Source: Halomonas sp.
GTDB taxonomy: Bacteria; Pseudomonadota; Gammaproteobacteria; Pseudomonadales; Halomonadaceae
Assembly: GCA_003560175.1 (NCBI GenBank)
Contig: PWIZ01000122.1
Location: 1 to 8,029, forward strand
Direction of reading: 5' to 3'
Length of the DNA: 8,029 nt
In this document: positions 1 to 8,029 of the stretch, in pieces
Layout: each line of letters starts with the position of its first letter
Numbering within the stretch: the stretch's first letter is position 1
Position numbers and translations under genes: made by a program
The notes under the pieces: generated by a model
What the model was told of the DNA's origin: nothing
Seen by the model: only the letters and a program-made list of their open reading frames with translations
Database searches by the model: none

Positions 1-183
1 ATCTACGAGGTGGTGCCGATCAGCCACGCCATGAGCCAGCTGATCATGAAGAACGGCAACTCCATGGATTTCCATGAGCTGGCCCGCCAGGAGGGCCACC
101 CGGACCTGCGCAGAAGCGGCCTGGTCAAGGCCATGCAGGGATTGACCAGCCTGGCCGAGATCAACCGAGTGACCAAGGATTGA
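1..183 (+). CDS. pilB: PilB, type IV pilus extension ATPase (3' end only)
   Basis: The window opens inside an open frame that gives 60 residues before a TGA at 181-183. The peptide starts IYEVVPISHAM and ends GLTSLAEINRVTKD. This matches the C-terminal tail of PilB-type GspE-family ATPases, which end in an L-x-KAMQG-x-TSL-x-E-x-NRVTKD pattern. PilB is the cytoplasmic hexameric ATPase that powers pilus extension at the inner-membrane platform. The Walker boxes, Asp box and His box lie upstream of the window and cannot be judged. The call is supported by complete pilC 83 bases downstream on the same strand. The gap to pilC shows no terminator, only a short direct repeat TCGAAAGC at 210-217 and 222-229, so the two genes are probably co-transcribed. 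Confidence 0.93.
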   Translation: MYEVVPISHAMSQLIMKNGNSMDFHELARQEGHPDLRRSGLVKAMQGLTSLAEINRVTKD

Positions 184-266
184 CGCCGGAACAGAAGCTC
201 GCACTGATTTCGAAAGCGTCATCGAAAGCCCGGCGCTGACCGTCAGGAACCCAAGGGATACGCACT

Positions 267-1502
267 ATGGCAACGGCACAGAAGCTCAGGGATCACCAGA
301 AAACCAAGCTCTACCGCTGGCGATGGACCGGCAAGGGCCCCGCCGGGCGCAAGGTGGGGGGCGAGATCGTCGCCGCCCAGAAGACCGAGGTGGAAAAGAT
401 CCTCGGCGGCCAGAACATCATCGTCAAGAACATCCGCCGCAAGGGGGGCTTCGGCGGCGGCATGGGCAAGATCAAGCCCCGGGACATCATGCTGTTCGCC
501 CGCCAGATGGCGACCATGATCCGCGCCGGCGTGCCGGTGCTGCAGGCCTTCCAGGTGGTGGCAGAGAGCATCAAGAAACCGGCCATGAGCGCGCTGGTCC
601 AGGAGCTGATGAACGACGTGGCCGCCGGCGCCAGCTTCTCCGATGCGCTGAAGCGCCACCCCCAACACTTCGACCGGCTGTTCGCCAACCTGGTGGAGGC
701 CGGCGAGCAGTCCGGCTCGCTGGACAGGATGCTCGAGCGGGTGGCCACCTATAAGGAGAAGATCGAGCTGCTCAAGGGGCGCGTCAAGAAGGCGCTCTGG
801 TACCCGGCGGCGGTGATCTCCGTGGGTCTCGGCGTCACCGCCCTGCTGCTGATCAAGGTGATTCCCCAGTTCGAGAGCCTGTTCCAGGGCTTCGGCGCAG
901 AGTTGCCCGCCATGACCCGCATGACCATCGCCATGTCCGAGTTCGCCCAGGCCTACTGGTGGTGGGGGGTGCTCGGGGTGGTGGCCTTCATCTACTTCAT
1001 CCGCACCGGCATGAAACGCTCCGAGACCTTCGCCTACCGCATGCATGCCATGGCCCTGAAGCTGCCGGTGCTGGGCCAGATCCTGGATAAATCCTCGGTC
1101 GCGCGCTACTCGCGTACCCTTGCCACCACCTTCGGCGCCGGCGTGCCGCTGGTGGAGGCGCTGGAGACCGCCGCCGGCGCCACCGGCAACATGGTCTACG
1201 AGCGCGCGGTGGCGCAGGTCCGCGAGGACGTCTCCACCGGCCAGCAGCTGGCCTTCGCCATGCGCATGACCGAGCAGTTCCCGGCCCTGGCCGTGCAGAT
1301 GGTCGGCATCGGCGAGGAGTCCGGCGCCCTGGACGCCATGCTCAACCGGGTGGCGGACTACTACGAGGAGGAGGTCGACAACATGGTCGATACCCTCACC
1401 TCGCTGCTGGAGCCCCTGATCATCGTGGTGCTCGGCGTGCTGGTGGGCGGCCTGGTCATCTCCATGTACCTGCCGATCTTCGAGCTGGGCAGCGTGATCT
1501 GA
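267..1502 (+). CDS. pilC: PilC, type IV pilus inner-membrane platform protein
   Basis: This 411-residue protein has the usual PilC/GspF length and two tandem T2SSF domains at about residues 73-196 and 277-400. Each repeat carries the family signature: GEQSG at 146-150 and GEESG at 349-353. Hydrophobic segments at about 178-200, 231-246 and 381-403 give the expected three-helix inner-membrane topology, with large cytoplasmic lobes that contact PilB. PilC couples ATPase motion to extraction of pilin from the membrane. The ATG at 267 is chosen because AAGGGA (253-258) lies 8 bases upstream and the N-terminus (a K/R-rich stretch then YRWRWTGKG) matches PilC starts. It sits between pilB and pilD. 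The 227-base gap to pilD is longer than usual for this operon because repeats occupy it. Confidence 0.97.
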   Translation: MATAQKLRDHQKTKLYRWRWTGKGPAGRKVGGEIVAAQKTEVEKILGGQNIIVKNIRRKGGFGGGMGKIKPRDIMLFARQMATMIRAGVPVLQAFQVVAESIKKPAMSALVQELMNDVAAGASFSDALKRHPQHFDRLFANLVEAGEQSGSLDRMLERVATYKEKIELLKGRVKKALWYPAAVISVGLGVTALLLIKVIPQFESLFQGFGAELPAMTRMTIAMSEFAQAYWWWGVLGVVAFIYFIRTGMKRSETFAYRMHAMALKLPVLGQILDKSSVARYSRTLATTFGAGVPLVEALETAAGATGNMVYERAVAQVREDVSTGQQLAFAMRMTEQFPALAVQMVGIGEESGALDAMLNRVADYYEEEVDNMVDTLTSLLEPLIIVVLGVLVGGLVISMYLPIFELGSVI

Positions 1503-1510
1503 GGACAAGC

Positions 1511-1540
1511 CGGTGGGTGCTGGGCTCAGTGGCCCGAGGG
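1511..1540 (+). repeat. Degenerate REP-like unit just after pilC
   Basis: GGTGGGTGCTGGGCTC at 1512-1527 matches GGTGGGAGCTGGGCTC at 1547-1562 with one mismatch, and both are followed by a CCCG-containing arm. It begins 9 bases after the pilC stop and looks like a decayed tandem copy of the REP unit that starts at 1545. Confidence 0.5.
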
Positions 1541-1543
1541 CAC

Positions 1544-1672
1544 TCTGGTGGGAGCTGGGCTCCGCCCGGCGAATGGCGGCGAAGCCGCCCCGCGGCATTA
1601 CCGGCCTGTGCTGTGGCCTCATCCCTTCGTCGATGCGTCGAACCGCCCGCAAAGCGTGGCTCCCACCAGAAG
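1544..1672. repeat. BIME-like element: two REP units in inward orientation (pilC-pilD gap)
   Basis: A plus-strand REP unit (about 1545-1586) begins CTGGTGGGAGC and ends GGCGGCGAAGCC. A minus-strand unit ends GCTCCCACCAG at 1659-1669. The outer ends 1544-1555 and 1659-1670 are perfect 12-base inverted repeats. The 48 bases 1625-1672 are the exact reverse complement of 2691-2738. The left unit is the reverse complement of the segment that begins GGCTTCGCCGCCATTCGC at 2604. The first unit also resembles Pseudomonas REPs, which have a GTGGGAGC foot followed by a GGGC/GCCC hairpin. In RNA the ends could pair into a long stem between the pilC and pilD messages. Confidence 0.85.
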
Positions 1673-1684
1673 CAACTGGCATTT

Positions 1685-1697
1685 GGTGGCAGCCACC
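1685..1697. other. Short palindrome GGTGGCAGCCACC upstream of pilD
   Basis: This is a perfect inverted repeat with 6-base arms and a 1-base centre, 32 bases before the pilD start codon. The 1-base centre does not suit an RNA hairpin of full length. It could be an operator half-site pair or a REP remnant. No function can be assigned. Confidence 0.4.
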
Positions 1698-1717
1698 GGG
1701 CCAACGTCCAATAACTC

Positions 1718-1722
1718 AAGGA
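1718..1722 (+). promoter_or_regulatory. Ribosome binding site that fixes the TTG start of pilD
   Basis: AAGGA lies 7 bases before the TTG at 1730. The first ATG in frame lies at residue 34, inside the conserved N-terminal region, so the site decides in favour of the TTG start. Confidence 0.75.
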
Positions 1723-1729
1723 ACGCGTT

Positions 1730-2581
1730 TTGCTGGATCTCCCCCCTTCCCTGCTCTGGCCGCTGGCCGCCTTTATCGGCCTCTGCCTGGGCAGCTTTCT
1801 CAACGTGGTGATCGTGCGCCTGCCGGTGATGCTGATGCTGGGCTGGCGGACCGAGGCCCGCGAGGCGCTGGAGCTGCCCACCGAGGAGCAGGTCCGCTTC
1901 AACCTGGCCACGCCGCGCTCGATGTGCCCCACCTGCGAGACCGCCATCGCCTGGCACGACAATCTGCCGGTGGTGGGCTGGCTCAAGCGCCGCGGGCGCT
2001 GCGCCAGCTGTGGCACGCGCATCAGCCCCCAGTATCCGTTGGTGGAGCTGGCCGGCGGCGCGCTGACGCTCTCTGTGGTGGCGATCTTCGGGCCGAGCTG
2101 GCAGGGGCTCTTCGTGCTGGGGGCCTGTCTTTCCCTGCTGGTCATGGCGGTGATCGATCTGCGCACCCAGCTCCTGCCGGATCTCCTCCCCCTGCCGCTG
2201 CTCTGGGCGGGGCTGCTCTATCAGCTGCTGTTCCAGCCGCTGCTGCTGCCCAGCGCGGTGATCGGCGCCATGGCGGGGTATCTGGTGCTGTGGAGCTTCT
2301 ACTGGGCCTTCAAGCTGACCACCGGCAAGGAGGGCATGGGCTACGGCGACTTCAAGCTGCTGGCGGCCCTGGGCGCCTGGATGGGCTGGCAAGCCCTGCC
2401 GCTGATGCTGATTCTCTCCGCGGGGATCGGCGCCATCATCGGCATCCTGGTGCAGCTGGCGATACGGCGGCTGCGCGGCGCGCCGATGCCCTTCGGGCCC
2501 TACCTGGCCCTCGCCGGCTGGGTGGCCCTGCTGGGTGGCGAACCGCTGATGGCGGTGTATGGGCGGTTTTTCCTGCTGTAG
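1730..2581 (+). CDS. pilD: PilD, type IV prepilin leader peptidase / N-methyltransferase
   Basis: This is a 283-residue polytopic inner-membrane protein of the A24 prepilin peptidase family. It cleaves the leader of type IV prepilins and pseudopilins and N-methylates the new N-terminus. The N-terminal signature GSFLNVVIVRLP (residues 21-32) is present. A CxxC pair of pairs (C66, C69, C91, C94) forms the zinc-binding cytoplasmic loop. The catalytic aspartates should be D143 (in AVIDLRTQLLPD) and D207 (in GYGDFK), spaced 64 residues apart as in Pseudomonas PilD. The remaining chain is a series of membrane helices. The start is TTG, supported by AAGGA 7 bases upstream. coaE, often the next gene, does not follow; the gene ends in a convergent gap facing hpt. 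Confidence 0.96.
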   Translation: MLDLPPSLLWPLAAFIGLCLGSFLNVVIVRLPVMLMLGWRTEAREALELPTEEQVRFNLATPRSMCPTCETAIAWHDNLPVVGWLKRRGRCASCGTRISPQYPLVELAGGALTLSVVAIFGPSWQGLFVLGACLSLLVMAVIDLRTQLLPDLLPLPLLWAGLLYQLLFQPLLLPSAVIGAMAGYLVLWSFYWAFKLTTGKEGMGYGDFKLLAALGAWMGWQALPLMLILSAGIGAIIGILVQLAIRRLRGAPMPFGPYLALAGWVALLGGEPLMAVYGRFFLL

Positions 2582-2603
2582 CATTTCGGCAGATTGAGGC
2601 TTC

Positions 2604-2767
2604 GGCTTCGCCGCCATTCGCCCGGCAGAGCCGATCTCCTACCAGTCACTTGAAGCCTTGGCGGTTATCCAGCTGCCGCCAAGGCTGTTCCTTCTGGTGG
2701 GAGCCACGCTTTGCGGGCGGTTCGACGCATCGACGAAGAGGCAAAGCCACAACACTGGAAAATCACA
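2604..2767. repeat. BIME-like composite repeat between pilD and hpt (copy 1, 164 bp)
   Basis: The element has four parts: a minus-strand GTAG-type REP (2604-2645, reading CTGGTAGGAG on the minus strand); a central hairpin (2654-2686); a plus-strand GTGG-type REP (from 2694, CTGGTGGGAGCCACGC); and a tail ending AAAATCACA. The two REP heads pair with each other (2636-2645 with 2694-2703, one G-T mismatch), so they enclose the central hairpin in a nested stem. It aligns with 7881-8029 with 5-6 substitutions and one 15-base length difference. The last five bases overlap the end of hpt. Confidence 0.9.
2654..2686. terminator. Strong hairpin between convergent pilD and hpt
   Basis: AGCCTTGGCGG (2654-2664) and CCGCCAAGGCT (2676-2686) are perfect 11-base arms around an 11-base loop. 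The hairpin sits midway between converging genes, so it may act as a two-way terminator or 3'-end protector. There is no proper T-run on either strand, only GTTCCTT after it on the plus strand, so termination is an inference. In copy 2 the right arm has three mismatching bases. Confidence 0.4.
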
Positions 2768-3341
2768 TTCCCCGGGGCGCGAAGATGCCGGGGGCGTTGC
2801 GCCAGTAGCCCATGTAGTCCATGCCGAAGCCGAAGACGTAGCGGTCGGCGACTTCCAGGCTGCAGTAGTCGGCCTTGAGGTCGGGAATCGCCTTTCGGTC
2901 GTGCTGCTTGTCCACCAGCACGGCGGTAGAGATGCTGGCGGCGCCGGCCTCGCGGCAGTAGGCGAGGATGGCGGCCAGGGTGGCGCCTTCATCCAGGATG
3001 TCATCGACGATCACCACGTGGCGGCCGGCCATGGGCACCTCCGGGGAGACCCGCCAGAAGAGCTCGCCGCCGCGGGTGCCGCCCCGGTAGCGGGTGGCGT
3101 GCAGGTAATCCACCTCCAACGGGAAGCCAAGGCGCGGCAGCAGGTGGCCAGTGGTGATCAGGCCGCCGTTCATCACGCAGTAGAAGACCGGCAGCTTCTC
3201 GCCGAGGTCGCGGGTGATCTCGGCGGCCATGCGGTCCAGGGCGAGCTCCACGGCCTCCTGGGTGATCAGGCAGTCCGCGTTGTCCATTACCTCGCGCATA
3301 TCGGCGAGGGACTGGTGAAAATCGGCATCGAGTTTAGGCAT
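2763..3341 (-). CDS. hpt: Hypoxanthine-guanine phosphoribosyltransferase
   Basis: This 192-residue type I phosphoribosyltransferase makes IMP/GMP from hypoxanthine or guanine and PRPP in purine salvage, and is presumably cytosolic. The PRPP-binding signature VIVDDILDEGATL spans residues 110-122, with the acidic pair D113-D114. The early loop MNGG is at 57-60. The C-terminal motif VFGFGMDYMGYWRN at 169-182 corresponds to the purine-binding VxGYGxDYxxxYRN segment of HGPRTs. Purine specificity is inferred from that motif; xanthine use cannot be excluded. It follows nagZ on the same strand with a 69-base gap containing repeats, and the ribosome site before the ATG at 3341 is weak (GAG about 10 bases upstream). 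It may depend on read-through from nagZ. Its TGA at 2763-2765 lies inside the end of the neighbouring repeat. Confidence 0.9.
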   Translation of the reverse strand: MPKLDADFHQSLADMREVMDNADCLITQEAVELALDRMAAEITRDLGEKLPVFYCVMNGGLITTGHLLPRLGFPLEVDYLHATRYRGGTRGGELFWRVSPEVPMAGRHVVIVDDILDEGATLAAILAYCREAGAASISTAVLVDKQHDRKAIPDLKADYCSLEVADRYVFGFGMDYMGYWRNAPGIFAPRGM

Positions 3342-3362
3342 GGCAGGGGCTCGCGGTCGAAG

Positions 3363-3435
3363 TAAAAATCGGGGTAAAAATCGGGGTCAGACCCCTCAGG
3401 GAACTTTGCCTCAGAGAACGTCGGGGGCTGACCCC
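3363..3435. repeat. GGGGTCAGACCCC-type palindromic repeat at the nagZ/hpt junction
   Basis: TAAAAATCGGGG occurs twice in tandem (3363-3374 and 3375-3386) and runs into the palindrome GGGGTCAGACCCC (3383-3395). A second, imperfect palindrome GGGGCTGACCCC lies at 3424-3435, inside the end of nagZ. Read in the direction of nagZ transcription, the GGGG/CCCC palindrome is followed by GATTTTTA twice, which looks terminator-like. The sequence is unlike the REPs elsewhere in this window and belongs to a different repeat family. Confidence 0.75.
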
Positions 3436-4439
3436 AGAGCCTCGAGGTGGGCGTGGACGCGGCGCCAGCGGGAGAGCGCGGTGAGGGTCGAGAGCTCCGG
3501 GCGGGCGCGGGCGTAGCGCAGCCGAGTGAGGCGGCTGGCACCGGGGCGCTCGCGACAGGCATCGAGTACCTCGAGTGCGGCGGCGCGGTCGTTGCAGACC
3601 AGCAGCATGTCGCAGCCGGCGTTCAGCGCTGCCAGGGCGCGCTCGCCGGGGGTGCCGGCGGAGGCGGCGCCGGCCATGCTCAGGTCGTCGGAGAAGATCA
3701 CGCCCTTGAAGCCCAGGCTCTGGCGCAGCATGCCGAGCCAGAGAGGCGAGAAGCCGGCGGGGCGCGGGTCGAAGGCGGAATAGACCACGTGGGCGGGCAT
3801 GATGCCGTCCAGGTAACCGGCCAGGCGGGTGAAGGGCACCAGGTCGCGCTGGCGTAATGTCTCCAGCGAGCGCGGGTCCACCGGCAGTTCATGATGGGAA
3901 TCCGCCGCCACGCCGCCGTGGCCGGGGAAGTGCTTGCCCACGGCGACCATGCCGGCCTCGTGGAGGCCGTTGACGAAGGCGCCGGCCAGGGCGGCGACGA
4001 TCTCGGGGTCGGCGGAGAAGCTACGATCGCCGATCACCGTGGAGATGCCGTCGTCGACGTCGAGCACCGGGGCGAAGCTCAGATCCAGGCCGCAGGCGGC
4101 CATCTCCATGCCCAGCAGCCAGCCGGCGTCCTGGCAGAGCCGCCGGGTGATCTCGGGCTGGCCGTCAACGCCCGCCGCCAGACGCCCCATGGCCGGCAGC
4201 CGGGTGACACCCTCGCGCAGGCGCTGCACCCGTCCGCCCTCCTGGTCGATGGCCAGCAGCAGCTCCGGGCGCACCCCGCGAATCGCGTTGCTCAGTTCGC
4301 GCACCTGCTCCGCGGATTCGGTGTTGCGGGCAAACAGGATCACCCCGCCCACCTCGGGACGCGCCAGCAGCGTGCGCTCCTCCAGGGTGAGGGCGGTGCC
4401 TTCCAGGTCGAGCATCACCGGACCGAGGGTCGGGGGCAT
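3411..4439 (-). CDS. nagZ: NagZ, beta-N-acetylglucosaminidase (peptidoglycan recycling)
   Basis: This 342-residue family GH3 enzyme is close to the 341 residues of E. coli NagZ. It removes N-acetylglucosamine from anhydromuropeptides in the cytoplasm, which feeds peptidoglycan recycling and, in bacteria with an AmpR/AmpC system, supplies the inducer signal. Visible motifs are GPVMLDLEG near the N-terminus, AIDQEGGRVQR (63-73), KHFPGHGG (169-176) followed by D180-S-H182, which form the Asp-His acid/base dyad, and FSDDLSM (249-255) with nucleophile D251. No signal peptide is seen, as expected. The ATG at 4439 has AAGGA (minus strand, 4447-4451) 7 bases upstream. It lies 116 bases downstream of psrA on the same strand; I see no convincing separate promoter. 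The last residues, GSAPDVL, are encoded within a repeat. Confidence 0.96.
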   Translation of the reverse strand: MPPTLGPVMLDLEGTALTLEERTLLARPEVGGVILFARNTESAEQVRELSNAIRGVRPELLLAIDQEGGRVQRLREGVTRLPAMGRLAAGVDGQPEITRRLCQDAGWLLGMEMAACGLDLSFAPVLDVDDGISTVIGDRSFSADPEIVAALAGAFVNGLHEAGMVAVGKHFPGHGGVAADSHHELPVDPRSLETLRQRDLVPFTRLAGYLDGIMPAHVVYSAFDPRPAGFSPLWLGMLRQSLGFKGVIFSDDLSMAGAASAGTPGERALAALNAGCDMLLVCNDRAAALEVLDACRERPGASRLTRLRYARARPELSTLTALSRWRRVHAHLEALGSAPDVL

Positions 4440-4555
4440 CTTCGATTCCTTGGTTCTGAACAGACAGGCGTGAAAGGGGCAGAGTTTTTTAGAGGGGCGA
4501 AAGTTTAGGGCATCGCTAGCGGGAGTAACAGTCGCCTCTGGCGATCAGGAGCCAT

Positions 4556-5221
4556 TCAGGCCTCCTGGACTGACTGGGGAGCCGGGGCCGTCATCGGGGC
4601 CTGCATGGCCGCGACCACCACAGGGCGCAGGCGGCGGATCAGTTCGCGCACCGTCACATGATCCCCATAATCCTTCTCGGCGATATCGCGCAGCGCGTCA
4701 AGGCCGGAGAGCGTAAAGATGACGGTGCCGAGCATAAAGTGCAGGCGCCAGAAGCGTTCGGCGTCGGGCAGCTCGGGAGTGGCCTGGCGCACCAGCTCGG
4801 TGAAGCGCGTGAAGACGCTGCCATACTCCTCCTGAATGTAGCGGCGCAAATGCCCCTGGGCCTGGCTGTAGGCGAGCCCCAGCAGGCGCATGAAGACCTT
4901 GAGGCTGTTGCGCTCGGCGGGCACCTCCAGCACGCTGCGAGCCATGGTCTCGAGCAGCGCCTCGAGGGGGATCACCGCGTCGCCGTAGTGCGCCTGGAGC
5001 TCGTCCAGGGCGCGGTGGAAGCGTTCGGTAAAGGGGTCGAGGTAGCGGGAGAACACCGCCTGGATCAGCGATTTCTTCGAGCCGAAGTGGTAGTTCACCG
5101 CGGCCAGGTTGACCTTGGCCTTACTGGTGATGGTGCGCAGGGAGGTCTCGGCGAAGCCGCGCTCGGCGAACAACACCTCGGCCGTATCGAGAATGCGGGT
5201 AACGGTGTCGGTCTGGGCCAT
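4556..5221 (-). CDS. psrA: PsrA, TetR-family fatty-acid-responsive regulator
   Basis: This is a 221-residue TetR-family regulator. The N-terminal DNA-binding domain spans about residues 8-59, with the recognition region NLAAVNYHFGSKKSL at 38-52. The remainder is the ligand-binding and dimerisation half, including FMRLLGLAYSQAQGHLRRY. The start MAQTDTVTRILD, the helix-turn-helix and the FMRLLGLA block closely resemble Pseudomonas PsrA. That protein represses itself and fatty-acid degradation genes, activates rpoS, and releases DNA on binding long-chain fatty acids. Divergent adjacency to lexA is the Pseudomonas arrangement. I chose the ATG at 5221 because the alignable protein begins there; a longer frame to 5293 would start inside the predicted -35 box. 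The ribosome site is modest (GGAA about 8 bases upstream). The Ala/Pro-rich C-terminal tail is not conserved. Confidence 0.9.
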   Translation of the reverse strand: MAQTDTVTRILDTAEVLFAERGFAETSLRTITSKAKVNLAAVNYHFGSKKSLIQAVFSRYLDPFTERFHRALDELQAHYGDAVIPLEALLETMARSVLEVPAERNSLKVFMRLLGLAYSQAQGHLRRYIQEEYGSVFTRFTELVRQATPELPDAERFWRLHFMLGTVIFTLSGLDALRDIAEKDYGDHVTVRELIRRLRPVVVAAMQAPMTAPAPQSVQEA

Positions 5222-5238
5222 CTGAGGATTCCAATGAT

Positions 5239-5458: not shown

Positions 5459-6109
5459 ATGGCACGCCCCCTCACCCAGCGCCAGCAGAACGTCTATGAC
5501 TTCATCGTCAAGACCATCCAGGACCTTGGCTATCCGCCCACCCGGGCCGAGATCGCCCGGGCCCTGGGATTCCGCTCGCCCAACGCCGCCGAGGAGCACC
5601 TGCGGGCCCTCGAGAAGAAAGGCGCCATCCGCATGATCGCCGGCACCTCTCGCGGCATCCGCCTGCCCGCTCCGGAGCAGGAGGCCCTCGCCGAGGGCGA
5701 TGCCCCGCTCCAGGGGCTGCCGATCATCGGCGAGGTGGCCGCGGGCAGCCCGATCCTGGCCGCCGAGCATATCGACCGCTACTGCCCGCTGCCCCCGGAG
5801 TACTTCACCCCCCGGGCCGACTACCTGCTCAGGGTGCGGGGCCTCTCCATGAAGGATGTCGGCATCCTGGAGGGCGACCTGCTCGCCGTGCACCGCACCG
5901 AGCGGGTGCGCAACGGCCAGATCGTGGTGGCGCGCCTGGAGGACGAGGTGACGGTGAAGCGCTTCCAGCGCAGCGGTCACGTGGTCACCCTCACCGCCGA
6001 GAATCAGGAGTTCGTCCCCATCGAGGTGGACCTGCGCCATCAGGCGCTGGAGATCGAGGGCATCGGGGTGGGCGTGATCCGCGGCGGCAGCGGCCAGGCG
6101 CTGGGGTAG
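5459..6109 (+). CDS. lexA: LexA, SOS-response repressor
   Basis: This 216-residue LexA repressor (E. coli LexA has 202) represses DNA-damage genes until RecA filaments trigger its self-cleavage. The winged helix-turn-helix lies at about residues 1-68, starting [12 protein letters not shown] with the HTH around 28-48 ([21 protein letters not shown]). The cleavage site is the Ala95-Gly96 bond in GEVAAG. The Ser/Lys dyad is S130 (in RGLSMKD) and K167 (in EVTVKR). The linker, residues 69-85, is somewhat longer than in E. coli. The ATG at 5459 has GGAGGT at 5450-5455. The gene is divergent from psrA, and dinB follows after 33 bases on the same strand, consistent with one SOS-controlled transcript. 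All catalytic residues are intact, so it should be functional. Confidence 0.98.
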
Positions 6110-6142
6110 GCGCGACACCCCGCGCTTCCCGAGACTGCCCCC

Positions 6143-7192
6143 GTGAGAAAGATCCTCCACGCCGACTGCGACTGCTTCTTCGCGGCGGTGGAGATGCGCG
6201 ACAACCCGGCGCTGCGCGAGGTGCCGCTGGCCATCGGCGGCACCTCGGAGCGGCGCGGAGTGATCGCCACCTGCAACTATCCCGCCCGGGCCTACGGCAT
6301 CCATTCGGCGATGCCCACGGCCCGGGCGCTGCGCCTCTGCCCCCACCTCACCCTGCTGCCCGGCAGCTTCGAGAAATATCGCGAGGTCTCCCGGCAGATC
6401 GAGGCGATCTTCCACGAGCTCACCCCCCTGGTGGAGCCCCTCTCCCTGGACGAGGCCTTCCTCGACGTCAGCCAGGTGGAGCGCTTCTCCGGCAGCGCTA
6501 CCTGGATGGCCCGCTGGCTGAAGGCGGAGTGCCTGGCGCGCACCGGCATCACCCTCTCCGTGGGGGTAGCGCCCAACAAGTTTCTGGCCAAGATCGCCAG
6601 CGACTGGGAGAAGCCCGACGGCCTGACGGTGATCACCCCCGACCGCCTGGAGGCGTTCCTGCAGGCGCTGCCGGTGAAGAAGCTGCACGGGGTAGGCCCC
6701 GCCACCGGCGCGCGCCTGGACGCCATGGGCATCACCACCTGCGCGGCGCTGCGCGAGGTGCCCATCGAACGGCTGCTGGAGGCCTTCGGCAAGTTCGGCA
6801 AGCGGCTCTTCGAGCTGGCTCGGGGCATCGATGAGCGCCCGGTGCGCCTGGAGCGCGAACGCAAGTCGATCAGCGTGGAGAGCACCTTCGCCCAGGACCT
6901 GCCCGACCTCGCCAGCTGCCGCCAGGCCCTGGTACCGCTCTGCCAGCGTCTGGCGGAGCGCATCGCCCGCCACGGCCACCCGCCCCTGGCCGGGGTGGTG
7001 GTGAAGGTGCGCTTCGACGATTTCAGCCTGACCACCCTGGAGAGCCGCGGCCTGGCCCCCTCCCCCGAGAGCTTCGACCGCCTGCTGGAGCAGGCCTGGG
7101 AACGCGGCCGCCGCCCGGTGCGCCTGCTCGGCGTCGGCGCCCGGCTGCTGCCGGAATCGCATCGCCGCCAGCTGACCCTGCCGATCGAGTGA
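6143..7192 (+). CDS. dinB: DinB, DNA polymerase IV (Y family)
   Basis: This 349-residue Y-family translesion polymerase is close to E. coli Pol IV (351). It copies past damaged bases with low fidelity at stalled forks. The start MRKILHADCDCFFAAVEMRDNPALR has the metal ligand D8 and steric-gate F13. SLDEA at 101-105 supplies the catalytic D103 and E104. GVAPNKFLAKIASDWEKP is the conserved palm segment, followed by the helix-hairpin-helix thumb (GVGPATGARLDAMGI) and the little-finger domain. The tail QLTLPI (343-348) fits the sliding-clamp binding motif. GTG at 6143 is the start because the family N-terminus begins there; the ribosome site is weak (GAGA at 6131-6134), which suggests translation helped by coupling to lexA 33 bases upstream. 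No separate SOS box is evident, so control probably comes from the lexA promoter. Confidence 0.97.
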   Translation: MRKILHADCDCFFAAVEMRDNPALREVPLAIGGTSERRGVIATCNYPARAYGIHSAMPTARALRLCPHLTLLPGSFEKYREVSRQIEAIFHELTPLVEPLSLDEAFLDVSQVERFSGSATWMARWLKAECLARTGITLSVGVAPNKFLAKIASDWEKPDGLTVITPDRLEAFLQALPVKKLHGVGPATGARLDAMGITTCAALREVPIERLLEAFGKFGKRLFELARGIDERPVRLERERKSISVESTFAQDLPDLASCRQALVPLCQRLAERIARHGHPPLAGVVVKVRFDDFSLTTLESRGLAPSPESFDRLLEQAWERGRRPVRLLGVGARLLPESHRRQLTLPIE

Positions 7193-7253: not shown

Positions 7254-7292
7254 CTGGTGGGAGCCACGCTCCGCGGGGCGAAGGCCGAGCAC
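7254..7292 (+). repeat. Single REP unit upstream of the RAYT gene
   Basis: CTGGTGGGAGCCACGCTCCG and the following GCGGGGCGAAGG match the GTGG-type REP at 7971-8004, with CC replacing TT in the loop. It carries the short form GCGGGGCGAAG, as does the copy downstream of the RAYT gene, and not the longer form found around pilD. AGACTGTT occurs just before it (7242-7249) and again just before the downstream repeat (7860-7867). Confidence 0.8.
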
Positions 7293-7415
7293 AGAACGTC
7301 GTGCGATAACGCCGTCCGGAGGAAAAATCTGACAACGCCTCTGGCACTCGGCTTACAGTCTGGCCAAGCTTTCCAACCTAACTTTCGGAGAGTGAGAAGG
7401 CCGAGGGACTGAAAT

Positions 7416-7850
7416 GTGGAGCGCTATCACACCCATTGCCTGCGGCGCGGTCGCGTCTCTCTTGCCGGGCACTGCTACCTGATTACGATCGTGACTGAGC
7501 GCCGCCAACCATGGTTTGGTGAGTACACGAATGCCGCGCACGCGTGCCGCAGTTTCTACGCCGACTCTGTTCGCACCCACGGCGATACTCTGGCGTTTGT
7601 GGTGATGCCCGATCACGTCCACTGGCTGCTTCAGGTTGAAGGCAGGCTCTCCGAGGCGGTTCGCATCTACAAGGCGAGGGTGTCATTGGCGCTGGGGGTG
7701 AAACCCTGGCAGCGCGGGTTTCATGACCATGGGCTGCGACGCGAGGAGGATCTGCGGGCAATAGCTCGATATATGGTTGCCAACCCTCTGAGGGCCGGGC
7801 TGGTAGATAATGTGCTCGACTATTCCTATTGGGATGCGGCGTGGTTGTAG
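7416..7850 (+). CDS. REP-associated tyrosine transposase (RAYT, Y1/IS200-like HUH nuclease)
   Basis: This 144-residue protein has the typical single-domain Y1 transposase size. The HUH motif is HVH at residues 67-69, within FVVMPDHVHWLL. The likely catalytic tyrosine is Y119, in ARYMVANPLRAGLV, the classic RAYT block. WQRGFHDHGLRREEDL (98-113) is also family-typical. Such enzymes bind and nick single-stranded REP hairpins next to a GTAG/GTGG tetranucleotide and are thought to drive REP dispersal. The start is GTG at 7416, with GAGGG (7403-7407) 8 bases upstream; the ATG at 7414 is out of frame. Codons end in A or T visibly more often than in lexA or dinB, which suggests a different history. 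It stands alone after dinB, 223 bases away, and appears intact. Confidence 0.92.
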   Translation: MERYHTHCLRRGRVSLAGHCYLITIVTERRQPWFGEYTNAAHACRSFYADSVRTHGDTLAFVVMPDHVHWLLQVEGRLSEAVRIYKARVSLALGVKPWQRGFHDHGLRREEDLRAIARYMVANPLRAGLVDNVLDYSYWDAAWL

Positions 7851-7880
7851 CCATCTTCCAGACTGTTAACACCGCCAGGC

Positions 7881-8029
7881 GGCTTCGCCGCCATTCGCCC
7901 GGCAGAGCCGATCTCCTACCAGTCACTTAAAGCCTTGGCGGTTATCCAGCTGCCACCATGGCCGTTCCTACTGGTGGGAGCCACGCTTTGCGGGGCGAAG
8001 AGGCAAAGCCACAACACTGGAAAATCACA
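7881..8029. repeat. BIME-like composite repeat downstream of the RAYT gene (copy 2)
   Basis: A minus-strand GTAG-type REP (7881-7922), a central imperfect hairpin (7931-7941 with 7953-7963, 8 of 11 pairs) and a plus-strand GTGG-type REP (from 7971) are followed by the tail AACACTGGAAAATCACA. It is nearly identical to 2604-2767 apart from a 15-base shortening after GCGGG. The match continues to the last base of the window, so the true right end is unseen. Confidence 0.9.

What the first reader, a model, noticed from the sequence alone, without database searches (positions are those of the whole stretch)
7254..8029. Intact RAYT gene flanked by its probable REP substrates
The sequence shows an HUH nuclease with its HVH motif and tyrosine block intact, with REP-type units on both sides. 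From the RAYT literature, such flanking REPs are normally the enzyme's own recognition substrates. A complete, possibly active REPtron next to an SOS operon is the best candidate in this window for a mobile or domesticated system.
Basis: partly seen in the sequence, partly recalled or inferred. Interest (0 to 1): 0.72.

Follow-up and report, generated by a model that had tools for sequence, protein, structure and literature searches.

The report
Repeat-spreading transposase beside dinB repair gene
In this Halomonas-group genome an intact gene of the REP-associated transposase family (RAYT) sits among short hairpin repeats next to the DNA-repair gene dinB; it is predicted to cut and spread those repeats, and because its DNA is almost identical in another species whose neighbouring genes differ clearly, it has likely passed between species recently.

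Summary
Window 7416-7850 is an intact 144-residue RAYT (NCBIfam NF047646, E 5.6e-35) with H67-V68-H69 and Y119 invariant in a 51-row alignment. A REP lies on each side in inverted orientation (7254 +, 7922 -). REPs read GTRG-GA-hairpin, like group 3 REPtrons. It is a new member of a known kind.

New here: (1) The gene fills the gap between convergent dinB and a CbiM-type gene; in five close relatives that gap is 9-74 bp and empty. (2) The RAYT core (7295-7905) is 605/611 identical to that of another species (G063), dS 0.019, while seven linked genes have dS 0.11-0.28; a second pair (G004/G079) shows 0.019 against dinB 0.373. (3) RAYT and dinB trees conflict. (4) 7 of 13 strict REPs of the genome lie on the two contigs at this locus. 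Together these point to recent transfer followed by local REP spread, against the usual picture of vertical inheritance.

Against: Cutting, mobility and cognate binding are untested. The contig's right end (7880-8029) may be chimeric.

The parts
7416..7850 (+). RAYT gene (TnpA-REP), 144 aa
7614..7622 (+). HUH motif H67-V68-H69
   Evidence: both histidines invariant in 51 rows
7770..7772 (+). predicted catalytic tyrosine Y119
   Evidence: invariant in 51 rows
7254..7282 (+). left REP, type A (CTG-GTGG-GA-7 bp hairpin with one mismatch, 3 nt loop)
7878..7922 (-). right REP, type B (GTAG head, short stem, second hairpin), inverted relative to the left REP; counterpart in G063
   Evidence: not picked up by the scan
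7971..7999 (+). second right REP, type A; may belong to a chimeric contig end
7295..7905 (+). core block, 605 of 611 bases identical to G063; near-identity runs on to 7923 and stops at the head of the right REP
1541..1676 (.). REP doublet between pilC and pilD; absent in G006 and G005
2603..2733 (.). REP doublet between pilD and hpt; absent in G006 and G005
6143..7192 (+). dinB, left border of the occupied gap
5459..6109 (+). lexA

Best explanation
The window carries an intact RAYT gene, the only over-cut-off copy in the held genome, inside an array of GTRG-headed REP hairpins between dinB and a CbiM-type gene; the enzyme is predicted to bind these hairpins as single strands and cut beside them, and the RAYT core has likely been exchanged recently between Halomonas-group species. 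Shown: gene, conserved catalytic residues, REP sequences, empty site in relatives, near-identity of the core with a species whose linked genes are 6-15 times more diverged at synonymous sites, REP concentration at the locus. Inferred: that cbiM follows directly (C43 is placed there by synteny), that this RAYT cuts these REPs with the GTRG head guiding the cut (CT, CA or CC as in studied group 3 enzymes), that it copied the REPs found at pilC-pilD and pilD-hpt, and that incoming cassettes enter by recombination or strand transfer between REPs, since the near-identical block runs from beside the left REP to the head of the right one.
For: Family, motifs. REP folds, GTRG + 2 nt + 6-7 bp stem, in 5 of 6 types folded. 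Empty dinB/cbiM gap of 33, 61, 9, 74 and 50 bp in G071, G006, G005, G014, G062. Core 605/611 with G063 while window 1-5224 is 88-89% and cbiM-purU 94%; dS RAYT 0.019 against 0.11-0.28 in 7 of 7 linked genes; G004/G079 RAYT dS 0.019 against dinB 0.373, G055/G088 0.045 against 0.232. Tree conflict: dinB rejects G049+G004+G079 (AU p 3.8e-5), a starred group in the RAYT tree. GC of RAYT lower than dinB for 21 of 21 RAYT copies with dinB at hand (20 genomes). Clustering: 7 of 13 strict REPs on C205+C43. No stop inside any of the 23 over-cut-off RAYTs of the genus; dN/dS 0.05-0.37 in 16 of 16 pairs of like RAYTs (of 3 further, distant pairs two were saturated).
Against: Type A REPs persist in six relatives without over-cut-off RAYT, and RAYT-bearing G063 and G014 hold only 4 each. 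G000 and G063 are both fragmented, incomplete assemblies. In other pairs RAYT divergence follows dinB (nucleotide identity in G055/G047 and G040/G081; dS ratio 0.59-0.73 in 10 pairs, above 1 in two), which fits vertical descent there and means RAYT dS often runs somewhat under dinB anyway. In G004/G079 the near flanks are rather alike too (mostly 91-100% per 100 columns, dips to 86), so the contrast is mostly with dinB 10 kb away. No close plasmid or phage carrier: best plasmid match 43%. REP patterns were chosen from RAYT loci, which favours finding them there. If the contig's right end is chimeric, 6 of 13 strict REPs lie at the locus.
Confidence: 0.74

Rival explanations
1. Ordinary vertically inherited, domesticated RAYT whose DNA is unusually conserved by selection; the empty sites are losses.
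For: dN/dS well below 1; several species pairs show RAYT divergence like dinB; PMC8049555 (passages) states that RAYTs are single-copy and vertically inherited.
Against: Near-identity covers synonymous sites and the non-coding leader (6 differences in 611) with dS 6-15 times lower than linked genes; RAYT and dinB trees conflict; five relatives have clean short gaps.
Confidence: 0.15
2. The REPs were spread by another enzyme or an extinct RAYT, and this gene merely landed in a REP-rich gap.
For: REPs in relatives without over-cut-off RAYT; a second Y1 protein, ORF 319 aa, on C61; G049 has an array of a different REP in the same gap.
Against: No CTGGTRGGAG on C61; strict REPs cluster at the RAYT locus; in the ventosae-type clade the four RAYT-bearing genomes have the four highest counts of their REP among 90.
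Confidence: 0.2
3. The dinB-RAYT junction is an assembly or binning artefact.
For: The contig's right end repeats hpt flank; 439 contigs, 72% complete.
Against: G063, another assembly, places the same RAYT directly before cbiM, the gene that follows dinB in relatives; G063 matches window 1-5224 at only 88-89%, so C205 is not a stray of that species; four other genomes have a RAYT in this gap.
Confidence: 0.06

Closest known systems
Group 3 REPtrons (TnpASm of Stenotrophomonas, TnpAMb of Marinomonas; PMC8266576, passages)
   Same: HUH plus tyrosine enzyme without the ~20-residue C-terminal extension of group 2; REP with GTRG head, 2 nt before the stem as in Mb; REPs crowded near the gene, read there as recent arrival
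   Different: Here heads are mixed GTGG and GTAG and stems mostly imperfect; the gap is occupied by different RAYT/REP types in different clades; no biochemistry
RAYT genes flanked by inverted REPs (PMC2817692, passages)
   Same: gene with a REP on each side in inverted orientation, GT(A/G)G head
   Different: low REP number (tens) and near-identity of the core between species
E. coli TnpAREP (PDB 4er8; organism recalled)
   Same: sequence relative, catalytic residues
   Different: distant (E 9.4e-7), longer chain (165 residues), group 2
IS200/IS605 TnpA
   Same: Y1 HUH chemistry expected; Y1_Tnp profile matched weakly
   Different: under the Pfam cut-off; one copy in the held genome; borders are REPs found also elsewhere

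Membership tests
RAYT / TnpAREP | sequence family | tested here: met
   NF047646 120.4 bits over cut-off 80
RAYT / TnpAREP | HUH motif and catalytic tyrosine | tested here: met
   H67, H69, Y119 invariant in 51 rows
RAYT / TnpAREP | REPs on both sides, inverted | tested here: met
   heads at 7254 + and 7922 -. In the genus a GTRGGAG-seeded hairpin scan found units within 600 bases on both sides in 12 of 23 loci, the nearest two inverted in 8 of those 12; there the window counts by its 7971 unit, not by 7922
RAYT / TnpAREP | same REPs dispersed in the genome | tested here: met
   13 strict hits, 0 for the reversed control; fewer than the >100 of the PMC2817692 abstract (listing)
RAYT / TnpAREP | REP abundance depends on the RAYT | tested here: inconclusive
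   clear for the ventosae-type REP, not for type A
RAYT / TnpAREP | cleaves cognate single-stranded REP | not testable with these tools
   needs purified protein
Group 3 RAYT | no C-terminal extension; GTRG head with short spacer | tested here: met
   144 aa; folds; group features from PMC8266576 passages; the extra N-terminal residues of group 3 were not tested
IS200/IS605 insertion sequence | Y1_Tnp over curated cut-off | tested here: not met
   20.4 bits, cut-off 23
IS200/IS605 insertion sequence | multicopy autonomous element | tested here: not met
   one over-cut-off copy in the held, 72% complete genome

The most novel reading that the evidence does not exclude
REPtrons here are themselves mobile units: the REP-RAYT-REP block moves between species and replaces one another at fixed chromosomal gaps (dinB/cbiM, and a site 6.5-7.3 kb beyond hpt), entering through their REPs, and each newcomer then seeds its own REP type nearby.
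Probability: 0.3. Interest if true: 0.72.

Novelty: new member of a known kind. Interest (0 to 1): 0.45.

Why it matters
RAYTs are described as single-copy, vertically inherited domesticated transposases (PMC8049555, passages). Recent exchange of a REP-bounded RAYT block between species, at an otherwise clean intergenic site with sequenced empty relatives, would make the old question of how REP systems enter genomes and whether they still move directly testable in culturable Halomonas.

Tried and rejected
First reading rejected: after I took contig C43 for an empty site elsewhere and G063 for a relocated copy (notes). One search showed that the C43 genes follow dinB in relatives, so both genomes have the RAYT at the same site, and C43 is the likely right-hand continuation across an assembly gap. 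Gap lengths in my notes were estimates; one search measured them.

SOS link: only position was looked at; the gap behaves as an insertion site. Plasmid or phage carriage: no close match. Second Y1 protein on C61 as the REP enzyme: no CTGGTRGGAG on that contig. Single ancestral occupation of the dinB/cbiM gap: not excluded (AU p 0.076 for all six RAYTs as one clade), but dinB rejects G000 with the ventosae-type clade (p 0.0015). G014a grouping with the G007 group in the RAYT tree is starred, yet dinB does not reject that grouping (p 0.09). The AU groups were chosen after seeing the trees, so their p values are optimistic. Four RAYTs (G007, G050, G018, G064) had no GTRGGAG-headed unit within 1 kb; their REPs were not pursued.

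Full report
What is there. The window is a whole contig (G000:C205, 8029 bases) of a 2.63 Mb, 439-contig, 72% complete genome. Genes: pilC, pilD, hpt(-), nagZ(-), psrA-type TetR(-), lexA, dinB, then the RAYT at 7416-7850. The RAYT passes NF047646 (120.4 bits, cut-off 80); Pfam Y1_Tnp is matched below cut-off. H67, H69 and Y119 are invariant in the window protein and 50 homologues chosen from the 120 listed. 3377 of 3451 candidate proteins matched at E <= 0.001.

REPs. Units read CTG-GTRG-GA-stem-loop-stem-GAA. Type A: GCCACGC/GCGGGGC with one mismatch and 3 nt loop; type B: GATCGGC/GCCGGGC or GCTGGGC/GCCCGGC, followed by a second hairpin. Of six units folded, five show a stem of 6-7 pairs starting 2 nt after the head; the GATCGGC form of type B, the one right of the RAYT, shows only 4 pairs. 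CTGGTRGGAG occurs 48 times in the genome against 28 for the reversed pattern. The stricter type A pattern (up to 1 mismatch) occurs 13 times against 0; 7 of the 13 lie on C205 and C43 (20.8 of 2626 kb; binomial 3e-12; on C205 alone 4 of 13, 6e-8). These tests treat hits as independent, the pattern came from this locus, and one of the 7 (7974) lies in the doubtful contig end.

Genus survey. Of 90 genomes, 22 hold a RAYT over the cut-off (23 genes). Type A REPs occur in 12 of 90: G038 15, G000 13, G029 7, G005 6, G006 6, G062 5, G071 5, G014 4, G063 4, G067 4, G061 1, G079 1. Of these G000, G014, G038, G061, G063 and G079 have an over-cut-off RAYT, six do not: REPs outlive or precede the gene, as PMC3686654 (abstract and section 8 seen) also describes for pseudomonads. 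A second REP type occurs in 10 of 90: G047 22, G088 16, G077 12, G055 10 (all four with RAYT at dinB) and G020 8, G065 6, G030 3, G086 2, G021 1, G059 1 without. Within 10 kb of the RAYT lie 9 of 22, 6 of 16, 6 of 12 and 3 of 10 (my count of the positions; binomial 1e-15 to 1e-5). A GTRGGAG-seeded hairpin scan of 23 RAYT loci found 92 units in 53.1 kb within 1 kb of the gene against 54 in 165.3 kb beyond 2 kb, and units within 600 bases on both sides in 12 of 23; the far DNA is mostly coding, which inflates the contrast, and four loci have less than 600 bases on one side.

The site. In relatives dinB and a CbiM-type gene (Pfam CbiM) followed by purU converge. I looked at this gap in 14 genomes: G000 and G063, G055, G047, G077, G088 have a RAYT with REPs (in G000 and G063 only one border gene is on the contig); G049 has a 675 bp array of another REP and no RAYT there; G067 ends in REPs at a contig end; G065 has a 950 bp insert ending in a REP-like unit, not analysed; G071, G006, G005, G014 and G062 are empty (33, 61, 9, 74 and 50 bp). 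REPs between pilC-pilD and pilD-hpt are likewise missing in G006 and G005, so REPs spread here after these lineages parted, or were lost there.

Movement. G063 carries the core 7295-7905 with 6 differences in 611 bases; near-identity continues to 7923 and breaks off at the head of the right REP, and left of the block the REP and spacer differ. Window 1-5224 is 88-89% identical to G063 contig C308, cbiM-purU 94%. dS: RAYT 0.019; pilC 0.234, pilD 0.210, hpt 0.205, nagZ 0.206, psrA 0.281, cbiM 0.114, purU 0.266. On the cbiM-purU tree G063 groups with RAYT-less G071 rather than G000 (AU p 0.019 against G000+G063). G004/G079: RAYT dS 0.019, dinB 0.373; G055/G088: 0.045 and 0.232; in ten further pairs RAYT dS is 0.59-0.73 of dinB, in G052/G011 and G007/G025 it is higher than dinB. 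Between clades RAYT falls to 60.5-69.1% nucleotide identity where dinB is 78.4-87.6%, even at the same site (G004 against G040: RAYT 66.7, dinB 87.3). The RAYT tree joins G049 with G004 and G079 (starred), dinB joins G004, G079, G040, G081 and rejects the RAYT grouping (p 3.8e-5); in the RAYT tree holding G004, G079, G040, G081 together is only just disfavoured (p 0.045), and holding G000, G063, G014b, G049 together is disfavoured (p 0.013). This suggests exchange and replacement of RAYT blocks, not only descent. RAYT GC is below dinB GC for 21 of 21 RAYT copies compared (20 genomes).

Literature. PMC2817692 (passages) defines RAYTs by two inverted flanking REPs with GT(A/G)G head and already proposes local REP growth after horizontal transfer (marine gammaproteobacteria, Thauera). 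PMC8266576 (passages) shows CT/CA cleavage and the guide role of GTAG for group 3, and reads crowding near the gene as recent arrival. PMC8049555 (passages) states vertical, single-copy inheritance. PMC3686654 (abstract and section 8) allows horizontal transfer. The searches naming Halomonas or REPtron (listings only) showed no title on RAYTs in Halomonas; most subscription papers are not held, and the 2017 RAYT paper cited there was not read.

Verdict. A true RAYT with its probable REPs, of a known kind. The interest lies in a well-bounded case of likely recent interspecies exchange and site turnover.

Noticed in passing
window 7996-8029 and 2734-2767: The contig's last 34 bases equal hpt-side flank of the pilD-hpt gap, after a 115-base doublet 96% identical (7880-7994 and 2603-2717): either a copied tract or a chimeric contig end.
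   Followed up: partly
window 2718-2733; similar in G055, G077, G088 arrays (L210, L211, L209): A palindromic insert around GGTTCGACGCATCGAC inside or behind REP hairpins recurs in two different REP types (seen by eye).
   Followed up: no
G000:C61 (L009 1222-2181): A second, longer Y1 transposase-like protein (ORF 319 aa) without CTGGTRGGAG on its contig; a similar one in G005 (L197 3980-4687).
   Followed up: partly
L209 (G088) 8196-11672: A second dinB 3' fragment lies between dinB and the RAYT, about 2.3 kb from the whole gene.
   Followed up: no
L205 (G049) 5574-6260: The same dinB/cbiM gap holds an array of a different REP (GTAGGAGCGCAGATTCTGCGCGAT) and no RAYT there; this genome's RAYT is about 10 kb away.
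   Followed up: partly
G014:C12:13317 and C44:2470: Two RAYTs of different clades in one genome, both open.
   Followed up: partly
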